Below are positions 26,425-29,061 of a stretch of 38,880 nucleotides of DNA, piece after piece. The notes under the pieces are model-generated. The model worked only from the letters and a program-made list of their open reading frames with translations, ran no database searches and had not been told where the DNA came from. The position numbers were made by a program, and so were the translations under genes. Origin of the DNA: Nitrospina sp. (GTDB lineage: Bacteria; Nitrospinota; Nitrospinia; Nitrospinales; VA-1). Location of the stretch: the NCBI GenBank assembly GCA_018702695.1, contig JABIYR010000051.1, positions 1 through 38,880 on the forward strand. Direction: 5' to 3'. Numbering within the stretch: position 1 is the stretch's first letter; each line of letters starts with the position of its first letter.

Positions 26425-26904
26425 ATGAAAGGCGATAAAGCGGTAATCAGTGCTTTGAACGATGTGTTGATGGCAGAATTGACTTCGATCAATATCTATT
26501 ACATCCATTATAAAATGCAGGAGGATTGGGGCTACGATAAAGTGTCGGCTCATTCACGCGAGGAATCTATGGGTGAAATGAAACATGCCGATTTGATGAT
26601 TGACCGCATTTTGTTTTTAGATGGGGTTCCCAATATGCAAAAATACGACACCGTTCTTGTGGGCAATGATGTGCACGCGCAATTGAAGAACCAATATAAA
26701 ATTGAATTGGCTCATGTGAAGCGGCTTCAGAAACATATTAAAACCTGCTTTGACAAAAATGATTTTGGAACTAAGGAAATTCTGGATGGCATTCTGGTCG
26801 ATACGGAAGACAGTGTGGACTGGTTGGAAACCCAGTTCAACCGCATCAAAGATATTGGTATCCAAAATTATCTGACCGAGAGCATGAGTCGGGACGGTAA
26901 TTAA
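26425..26904 (+). CDS. bfr: Bacterioferritin subunit with heme Met52 and degraded ferroxidase centre
   Basis: Aligns without gaps in numbering to E. coli Bfr: E18, Y25, E51, M52, H54, E94 present; positions 127/130 are T/S instead of E/H; 46/50 are E/G instead of H/D. Confidence 0.93.
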   Translation: MKGDKAVISALNDVLMAELTSINIYYIHYKMQEDWGYDKVSAHSREESMGEMKHADLMIDRILFLDGVPNMQKYDTVLVGNDVHAQLKNQYKIELAHVKRLQKHIKTCFDKNDFGTKEILDGILVDTEDSVDWLETQFNRIKDIGIQNYLTESMSRDGN

Positions 26905-26930: not shown

Positions 26931-26974
26931 AACCTGTTCTGATCTCTTAAAGAGATTGGAACAGGTTTTTTTTT
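26931..26974 (+). terminator. Strong intrinsic terminator after bfr
   Basis: AACCTGTTCtgATCTCTT/AAGAGATtgGAACAGGTT followed by a T run. Confidence 0.92.
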
Positions 26975-27131: not shown

Positions 27132-27160
27132 TTGACAAGTCGCCCCGCCTTGTTTATATT
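27132..27160 (+). promoter_or_regulatory. Sigma70-type promoter of the ferredoxin gene
   Basis: TTGACA (27132-27137), 17-bp spacer, TATATT (27155-27160). Confidence 0.75.
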
Positions 27161-27174
27161 GATAATCATTATCA
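27160..27174. promoter_or_regulatory. Fur box (perfect 7-1-7)
   Basis: TGATAAT-C-ATTATCA, identical to the classical Fur 7-1-7 consensus, abutting the -10. Confidence 0.88.
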
Positions 27175-27193
27175 TTTAGATAGCGGTGATCAA

Positions 27194-27451
27194 ATGCGAC
27201 AACAGAATGTGAAAATTTGTAAGGGAGCAGGGTGCAAAGCGTGGTCTTCCGACAAGATTGCTCGCGAATTGATAGAAGTGAATGAGGGCTTAGGGCCTGA
27301 AGGCATTCGTGTTTGTCGGGTGGCATGTATGAATGTCTGCGGGGGTGGAGCATCGGTGCGAGTTAACTCAAAAAATAAGATCGAAAAAATGAAATCGATA
27401 GAAGATATTTTGGAAGTTTTGGGTGTGGGGACGGCAGAGTTGACTGCTTAA
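27194..27451 (+). CDS. (2Fe-2S) thioredoxin-fold (NuoE-like) ferredoxin
   Basis: Cys pattern C-x4-C ... C-x3-C (CKGAGC; VCRVACMNVCGGG). Confidence 0.75.
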   Translation: MRQQNVKICKGAGCKAWSSDKIARELIEVNEGLGPEGIRVCRVACMNVCGGGASVRVNSKNKIEKMKSIEDILEVLGVGTAELTA

Positions 27452-27480: not shown

Positions 27481-27495
27481 TGAGAACGGTTCTCA
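27481..27495. promoter_or_regulatory. Perfect 7-1-7 dyad, candidate second Fur-family operator
   Basis: TGAGAAC-G-GTTCTCA 29 bp upstream of the EAL gene; same geometry as the 27160 Fur box. Confidence 0.55.
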
Positions 27496-27523
27496 TAACA
27501 ATTTTTTAAGACAGGTCCTTATT

Positions 27524-28315
27524 ATGTTGATGCAGACGCAAGCATATTTTAAGAAATCTCTGGCGAGAAATATTTTATCAGGTCTGGAGCTAGGAGAGTT
27601 TACAGTTTACTACCAACCCAAGTTTGATCTGACTTCCAGAAAAATTATTGGCCTAGAGGCACTTTCCAGATGGTATGCCTCTGGGGTGGGGTGGATTTCC
27701 CCGGCTGAGTTCATCCCGGTTGCCGAATCAACGGGAGCAATCATTCCATTGGGCGAACGAGTATTAGTGACCGCTTGCAAACAGACGAAATACTGGCAAG
27801 AGAATGGTTATCCTGAGTTGTCGGTGGCGGTAAATTTATCGTCCATTCAATTAGAAGAGAAAAATATTGTTACAAGAGTGGAGGACATTCTGAGCCAAAC
27901 GGGCTTGGACCCACGCTATTTAGAGTTGGAGGTCACGGAATCTGTTTTGATTAAAAACTCTATATGGGCCTTGGAAGTTTTAAAGCAATTCAGAAAGATC
28001 GGTATTAAATTAGCAATCGATGATTTTGGAACGGGTTACTCTACAATTGGCTATTTAACCACCTATCCTTTTGACAGTTTGAAACTAGACCAAATTTTTG
28101 CCAAGACCATTCATCTCACGCAAACCCAACTGGTGGTCCGGGCGATGGCTAACCTAGCACGGCAATTAGGTTTGACTACTCTGTTGGAAGGGGTTGAAGA
28201 ACAAACGGAGTTGGTGATGGCTCGCCACTTGGGTTGCGATCAGGTTCAGGGTCATGCTATCAGTCCGCCTCAACCCGCTGGGGAAATTGTTTTGGCAATG
28301 GAAAATTACAGTTAA
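27524..28315 (+). CDS. Stand-alone EAL-domain c-di-GMP phosphodiesterase
   Basis: GLEALSRW, VNLSSIQ, LELEVTES, IDDFGTGYS, LKLDQIF, LLEGVEEQ, GCDQVQG; catalytic residues appear intact. Confidence 0.92.
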   Translation: MLMQTQAYFKKSLARNILSGLELGEFTVYYQPKFDLTSRKIIGLEALSRWYASGVGWISPAEFIPVAESTGAIIPLGERVLVTACKQTKYWQENGYPELSVAVNLSSIQLEEKNIVTRVEDILSQTGLDPRYLELEVTESVLIKNSIWALEVLKQFRKIGIKLAIDDFGTGYSTIGYLTTYPFDSLKLDQIFAKTIHLTQTQLVVRAMANLARQLGLTTLLEGVEEQTELVMARHLGCDQVQGHAISPPQPAGEIVLAMENYS

Positions 28316-28488: not shown

Positions 28489-29061
28489 ATGGCATCTTTA
28501 AAATTTCTTTTAACTTTGGCGGTCATGGTCTCGGTGCTCTTGCTCGGACCAGGCTTTTCCTATTCGCAGGAAAAGGAATTACAAGTTCAGGTTTTTCTCA
28601 CTAAAAAACAGGCTCTTGAAATTGCTTTTCCAGGTGCGGATAAGGTGGAGCGAGAGAAAAAATGGTTGACGGATGAGCAAAAAACAGCCATCGCTGACCT
28701 GGCTATGCAAAATTTTGATGCCAACCGCGTGACTTTTTATGTTGGTAAACGCAATGATGCTCCAATGGGGTATGCAGTCATCGACCATGAGATCGGCAAA
28801 TCTTACCCGATCACGTTCATGGTTGTTCTCAATGTAGACGGAACGGTTCGTGATGTAGAGATCTTGATCTATCGAGAGCCACGCGGGTGGGAGGTTCGCT
28901 ACCCTTCTTTCATGGATCAATTTACCGGTAAGGATGCGGAGGCAGATTATCGTACGATCAACACCATTACCGGAGCAACGCTGTCGGTGAGGGCGATGGT
29001 CAAGGGGGTTTCCCGAATCAGTGCGGCTTATAAGGTTTTGTATCTTTCCGATAAACCCTAA
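28489..29061 (+). CDS. Exported FMN-binding domain protein (RnfG/NqrC/NosR-like)
   Basis: Signal peptide (MASLKFLLTLAVMVSVLLLGPGFSYSQ) and flavinylation-like motif INTITGATLSVRAMVKGV. Confidence 0.75.
   Translation: MASLKFLLTLAVMVSVLLLGPGFSYSQEKELQVQVFLTKKQALEIAFPGADKVEREKKWLTDEQKTAIADLAMQNFDANRVTFYVGKRNDAPMGYAVIDHEIGKSYPITFMVVLNVDGTVRDVEILIYREPRGWEVRYPSFMDQFTGKDAEADYRTINTITGATLSVRAMVKGVSRISAAYKVLYLSDKP

What the first reader, a model, noticed from the sequence alone, without database searches (positions are those of the whole stretch)
27132..27451. Fur-box-controlled thioredoxin-fold [2Fe-2S] ferredoxin next to bfr: candidate Bfd analogue
A perfect TGATAAT-C-ATTATCA palindrome abuts the -10 of a TTGACA-N17-TATATT promoter, so the gene should be tightly Fur-repressed. 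The product is a NuoE-like Cx4C/Cx3C ferredoxin lying just after bfr but insulated from it by a strong terminator. In known systems the Bfr-associated ferredoxin (Bfd) is induced on iron starvation to release iron from Bfr. A different ferredoxin fold in the same position and under the same control could be an independent solution for iron mobilisation. The functional link is my inference.
Basis: partly seen in the sequence, partly recalled or inferred. Interest (0 to 1): 0.68.

Follow-up and report, generated by a model that had tools for sequence, protein, structure and literature searches.

The report
Iron-controlled ferredoxin paired with bacterioferritin
In marine nitrite-oxidising bacteria of the Nitrospina group, a small thioredoxin-fold iron-sulphur protein under a Fur-type iron switch travels with an unusual bacterioferritin, and it probably passes electrons to that store to release iron, although a more conventional candidate also exists in the same genome.

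Summary
An 85-aa thioredoxin-fold [2Fe-2S]-type ferredoxin (fd, 27194-27451) has a sigma-70-type promoter whose -10 overlaps a perfect Fur palindrome (27160-27174), the only perfect copy in the genome. It follows bfr after a strong terminator. The window is a Nitrospina-group MAG.

In 60 relatives of the order, fd and bfr co-occur (36 both, 1 fd only, 3 bfr only, 20 neither). They are mostly adjacent, and a Fur-like box lies upstream of 38 of 38 testable fd copies. In one genome fd directly precedes two bfr genes. fd follows bfr rather than its other neighbour, DUF2325.

Both types persist in genomes with no ferritin, so they are not Bfr-dedicated.

The Bfr is itself odd: it keeps haem ligand M52 but has lost ferroxidase ligands E127 and H130 across the order, and its Bfd-dock region is altered.

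Best reading: fd is the Bfr-dedicated, Fur-derepressed electron donor, a Bfd analogue with another fold. This is inferred, not shown (about 0.5). The window has also lost fur, DUF2325 and a response regulator; an EAL gene now sits behind the old DUF2325 Fur box.

The parts
26425..26904 (+). bfr: haem-type bacterioferritin, 159 aa. Haem ligand M52 kept; ferroxidase ligands E127 and H130 replaced by T and S
   Evidence: PF00210 and TIGR00754 over cut-off; residue counts over 31 relatives
26931..26974 (+). intrinsic terminator behind bfr (stem-loop 26931-26967 and T-run)
   Evidence: z-score -5.0
27132..27160 (+). sigma-70-type promoter of fd, TTGACA-17-TATATT
   Evidence: same layout in the genus
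27160..27174 (.). Fur-type operator TGATAATCATTATCA over the end of the -10
   Evidence: 38 of 38 testable homologues have a box 28-45 bp before the start codon
27194..27451 (+). fd: 85-aa thioredoxin-fold ferredoxin, Cx4C and Cx3C
27481..27495 (.). second palindrome TGAGAACGGTTCTCA, homologous to the Fur box in front of DUF2325 in relatives; DUF2325 itself is lost here
   Evidence: alignment; no DUF2325 in the genome
27524..28315 (+). EAL-domain phosphodiesterase gene, now directly behind the old DUF2325 box
   Evidence: PF00563; in relatives DUF2325 and a response regulator lie between

Best explanation
fd is the dedicated redox partner of this order's haem-type bacterioferritin. With enough iron, Fur-Fe covers the -10 region and blocks fd, while bfr is made from its own promoter without a Fur box. 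On iron starvation Fur leaves, fd is made, docks on Bfr and passes electrons through the haem to stored Fe(III), so that Fe(II) leaves. It would work like Bfd but with the thioredoxin-like ferredoxin fold. Shown here: promoter, box, gene linkage, co-occurrence with bfr, fold prediction. Inferred: that the regulator is Fur sensing iron, the cluster type, docking, electron transfer and iron release.
For: Co-occurrence of fd with bfr in 60 genomes: 36 both, 1 fd only, 3 bfr only, 20 neither; 22/0/1/4 in the 27 best genomes. Adjacency over several families. Fur-like box on 38 of 38 fd copies but on only 4 of 32 bfr copies. In G056 fd lies 46 bp before two bfr genes on the same strand. Where DUF2325 and bfr part ways, fd goes with bfr: G021, G035, G050 and the window have fd and bfr without DUF2325; G011, G023, G034, G040 and G044 have DUF2325 with neither; no genome has fd plus DUF2325 without bfr. 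BFD proteins show no such tie. M52 is invariant, and residues 73-75 beside the known Bfd dock (P69-Q72, PMC13136788) change from D-L-G to K/R-Y-D.
Against: A Fur-boxed BFD-domain protein exists in the same genome. G016 and G029 keep bfr with no fd found, and in G025 and G047 the two are not adjacent. G053 has fd copies away from bfr, one beside DUF2325. Adjacent genes are lost or missed together, so co-loss is partly expected. The Bfr lacks two ferroxidase ligands, so classical iron storage is itself uncertain. No interaction was tested.
Confidence: 0.5

Rival explanations
1. fd is a general low-iron electron carrier of the Fur regulon. It serves another partner (DUF2325, a reductase or Fe-S maintenance) and sits near bfr only because iron genes cluster beside fur.
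For: The block also holds fur, DUF2325 and a porin, and DUF2325 and the porin have Fur-like boxes too. In G025 and G053 fd sits by DUF2325 away from bfr.
Against: fd stays with bfr in genomes that lack DUF2325, and DUF2325 persists without fd in five genomes that also lack bfr. In G000 and in the g10 and g14 genera no fur gene lies between bfr and fd, yet the pair is kept.
Confidence: 0.28
2. The type-A BFD protein (L001 1468-1767) is the real Bfd and unloads Bfr; fd does something else or is a backup.
For: Fer2_BFD domain over cut-off with CxC and CxxC. Fur-like box at 11 of 14 or better in 22 of 31 sampled genomes, shuffles 4.6%.
Against: Present in genomes with no ferritin at all, such as G005, G024 and G055. 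Unlinked to bfr. Closest NCBIfam models are NifU and NirB, not Bfd; match to solved Bfd only E = 1.2.
Confidence: 0.17
3. The palindrome is an operator of another Fur-family regulator (for example zinc-sensing Zur), so fd does not answer to iron.
For: 7-1-7 TGATAAT-N-ATTATCA boxes are also known for some Zur proteins (own knowledge). No classical iron-uptake genes were found behind the strongest boxes.
Against: The genome has only one Fur-family protein over the cut-off, and it is closest to true Fur in the PDB and NCBIfam. Targets are iron-sulphur proteins beside a ferritin.
Confidence: 0.05

Closest known systems
Bacterioferritin-associated ferredoxin (Bfd) with BfrB, Pseudomonas aeruginosa (PMC7760384, PMC13136788)
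   Same: Small iron-sulphur protein gene linked to bfr; the ferredoxin, not the ferritin, carries the Fur box; a haem-type Bfr as presumed target
   Different: Bfd has the BFD helical fold with CxC and CxxC; fd has a thioredoxin-like fold with Cx4C and Cx3C and no detectable similarity to BFD; the function of fd is untested
Thioredoxin-like [2Fe-2S] ferredoxins (Aquifex aeolicus 1f37, Rhodobacter capsulatus 9jn8) and NuoE/HydC subunits
   Same: Predicted fold and cysteine pattern
   Different: fd is smaller, is Fur-boxed and linked to bfr; sequence identity in the structural matches is 13-30%
Haem-bearing, ferroxidase-poor Bfr subunits of mixed bacterioferritins, such as Magnetospirillum Bfr2 (PMC8945002)
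   Same: M52 kept, ferroxidase ligands lost
   Different: Here it is the only PF00210 protein in the window genome and in most relatives; no ferroxidase-bearing partner subunit found
Desulfovibrio bacterioferritin with its adjacent rubredoxin gene (own knowledge; no paper on it was read here)
   Same: Precedent for a Bfr with a non-Bfd redox partner encoded beside it
   Different: Partner is a rubredoxin, not a thioredoxin-fold ferredoxin

Membership tests
Bacterioferritin-associated ferredoxin (Bfd, Fer2_BFD) | BFD-type fold and CxC..CxxC cluster motif | tested here: not met
   No Fer2_BFD match for fd; motif is Cx4C and Cx3C; fold is thioredoxin-like
Bacterioferritin-associated ferredoxin (Bfd, Fer2_BFD) | Gene linked to bfr | tested here: met
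   Adjacent in most genomes of the order, with exceptions G025 and G047
Bacterioferritin-associated ferredoxin (Bfd, Fer2_BFD) | Binds Bfr and drives reductive iron release through the haem | not testable with these tools
   Needs purified proteins
Thioredoxin-like [2Fe-2S] ferredoxin | Thioredoxin-like fold with Cx4C and Cx3C ligands | tested here: met
   Invariant cysteines; model pLDDT 73.6; Foldseek prob 1.00 to 1f37 and NuoE/HydC
Thioredoxin-like [2Fe-2S] ferredoxin | Binds a [2Fe-2S] cluster | not testable with these tools
   Inferred from ligands only
Bacterioferritin | Bfr family match and haem ligand M52 | tested here: met
   TIGR00754 168 bits against a cut-off of 125.55; M52 in 31 of 31
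Bacterioferritin | Complete di-iron ferroxidase centre (E18, E51, H54, E94, E127, H130) | tested here: not met
   E127 is T or S and H130 is S or A in all 31; known in haem-type subunits of mixed Bfr
Fur regulon | Operator matching the Fur palindrome over the promoter | tested here: met
   14 of 14 arm positions in the window; at least 11 of 14 in 38 of 38 homologues
Fur regulon | Iron-dependent repression of the gene | not testable with these tools
   Needs EMSA or transcript data

The most novel reading that the evidence does not exclude
Nitrospinales evolved an independent bacterioferritin reductase: a thioredoxin-fold ferredoxin, derepressed by Fur, that unloads a haem-type Bfr lacking a normal ferroxidase centre through an altered docking surface.
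Probability: 0.42. Interest if true: 0.75.

Novelty: new variant of a known kind. Interest (0 to 1): 0.56.

Why it matters
Nitrospina-group bacteria are major marine nitrite oxidisers with, by general knowledge, a high iron demand, and the paper searches here found nothing on how they store and release iron. If fd serves Bfr, iron release from bacterioferritin has evolved with at least two unrelated ferredoxin folds. A Bfr without a normal ferroxidase centre as sole ferritin also raises a directly testable question: how is its core loaded?

Tried and rejected
The absence of a canonical Bfd was considered and rejected: two Fer2_BFD proteins were found. The type-B one (CxC..CxxxxC, L002) was set aside as a Bfd: GlpA-like best model, a Fur-like box in only 1 of 11 sampled upstream regions, and present in ferritin-less G005. 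It does show weak similarity to solved Bfd (E 7e-4). Type A was kept as a rival because of its boxes.

Other Fur-like sites in the genome with up to 2 mismatches lie inside ORFs, apart from fd and the relocated porin, so no classical iron-uptake regulon was recovered at that cut-off.

The P. aeruginosa contact residues L68 and E81 were tried as a test of Bfd binding. They differ among known pairs (PMC13136788), so their change here is only weak evidence.

Literature searches for a Nitrospina bacterioferritin, DUF2325 function or a thioredoxin-fold Bfr partner found nothing on point in titles and abstracts.

Full report
WHAT IS THERE. The promoter, palindrome and gene are as described. TTGACA 27132-27137, 17 nt, TATATT 27155-27160; TGATAATCATTATCA 27160-27174, the only perfect copy in the 2.49-Mb genome. 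Near copies are in five-fold excess over the reversed pattern, 175 against 35. The gene 27194-27451 encodes 85 aa with C9-x4-C14 and C45-x3-C49. bfr (26425-26904) ends in a terminator with a 17-pair stem, so fd probably has its own transcript.

THE PROTEIN. Pfam and NCBIfam give only sub-threshold hits (DUF1636, NuoE). A 38-sequence family alignment keeps the four Cys, G11, W17 and G52 invariant. The AlphaFold model (mean pLDDT 73.6) has beta-alpha-beta-beta-beta-alpha order. It matches hydrogenase HydA/HydC, NuoE and the Aquifex thioredoxin-like ferredoxin 1f37 in Foldseek (prob 1.00, E 5e-4 to 3e-3). The fold call is therefore good; the cluster itself is inferred.

CONSERVATION AND CONTEXT. 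Among 60 genomes of the order, fd is in 37 and bfr in 39: 36 both, 1 fd only, 3 bfr only, 20 neither. In the 27 best genomes this is 22/0/1/4. These counts are inflated by relatedness and by neighbouring genes being missed together in drafts, so they are support, not proof. The usual order is era-map-bfr, a Fur-family gene on the opposite strand, then fd-DUF2325-response regulator-(EAL)-porin-FMN_bind. Variants are telling. In G034 and G040, bfr, fur and fd are absent from the map locus but DUF2325 and porin are kept; G024 and G055 go from map directly to the porin. G056 has fd 46 bp in front of two bfr genes on the same strand. Genome-wide, four relatives (G021, G031, G035, G050) and the window have fd but no DUF2325, five have DUF2325 with neither fd nor bfr, and none has fd plus DUF2325 without bfr. 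Exceptions: G025 has fd 124 kb from bfr; G047 has them on different contigs; G053 has three fd copies, one beside DUF2325 away from bfr; G016 and G029 have bfr with no fd found; in G019 the contig ends at bfr.

CONTROL. All 38 fd promoters with enough sequence carry a Fur-like palindrome (at least 11 of 14 arm positions) 28-45 bp before the start codon; shuffles reach that in 4.6%. bfr upstream regions reach it in 4 of 32, three of them in one genus. So the ferredoxin, not the ferritin, is the regulated partner, as expected for a Bfd-like system. The window genome has one Fur-family protein over the cut-off (contig C32), closest to true Fur. The locus-type Fur of relatives is 45% identical to it and is missing here.

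THE BFR. All 31 Bfr proteins aligned keep E18, E51, M52, H54 and E94, but E127 is T or S and H130 is S or A. That resembles the haem-bearing, ferroxidase-poor subunits of mixed bacterioferritins (PMC8945002, PMC13136788), yet here it is the sole PF00210 protein in the genome and in most relatives. Residues 73-75, next to the P69-Q72 docking site described for Bfd, are K/R-Y-D where E. coli and P. aeruginosa have D-L-G. The two reference Bfr sequences were typed in from memory for alignment; their numbering agrees with the solved homologues.

THE COMPETITORS. Two Fer2_BFD proteins are in the genome. Type A (CxC-x32-CxxC) has Fur-like boxes in 22 of 31 sampled genomes (shuffles 4.6%), but it is kept in genomes without any ferritin. 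Type B lacks a box in 10 of 11 sampled upstream regions and has GlpA-like spacing. Neither is Bfr-dedicated by these tests, but type A could still serve Bfr. This is the main reason why confidence stays near 0.5.

LOCAL EROSION IN THE WINDOW. The stretch after fd, including palindrome 27481-27495, aligns with the DUF2325 promoter and Fur box of relatives. DUF2325 is gone from the genome, and the porin lies on contig C4, where it carries a one-mismatch Fur box. The EAL phosphodiesterase gene now follows the old box directly and may have come under iron control.

VERDICT. Observation confirmed. A partnership with Bfr is well supported as a linkage and remains inference as a mechanism. The claim that fd stands in for an absent Bfd is not supported as stated, because BFD-domain proteins are present.

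Noticed in passing
window 27481-27530: The Fur box in front of the EAL gene is the old DUF2325 promoter box; deletion of DUF2325 and a response regulator has put a c-di-GMP phosphodiesterase gene behind an iron-type operator.
   Followed up: partly
window 26425-26904: Haem-type Bfr with M52 but without ferroxidase ligands E127 and H130, order-wide, and the only PF00210 protein in this genome: how iron is oxidised and loaded is unclear.
   Followed up: partly
L001 1468-1767: A 99-aa BFD-type (2Fe-2S) protein next to larC has a Fur-like box upstream in most sampled relatives and is kept in genomes with no ferritin.
   Followed up: partly
L007 181-1425 (contig C4): The porin that follows fd and DUF2325 in relatives lies elsewhere in this genome, with a one-mismatch Fur box 76 bp upstream.
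   Followed up: partly
L054 8095-8391: DUF2325 protein downstream of fd in relatives, with its own Fur-like box in most of them; function unknown, and it can persist without fd or bfr (G023, G034, G040).
   Followed up: partly
L083, L084, L090 (G053): One relative carries three fd paralogues on different contigs, all with Fur-like boxes; one has the perfect TGATAATCATTATCA.
   Followed up: no
window 28489-29061: RnfG-like FMN-binding domain protein at the end of the conserved block; no other Rnf genes were seen in the neighbouring ORFs inspected.
   Followed up: no
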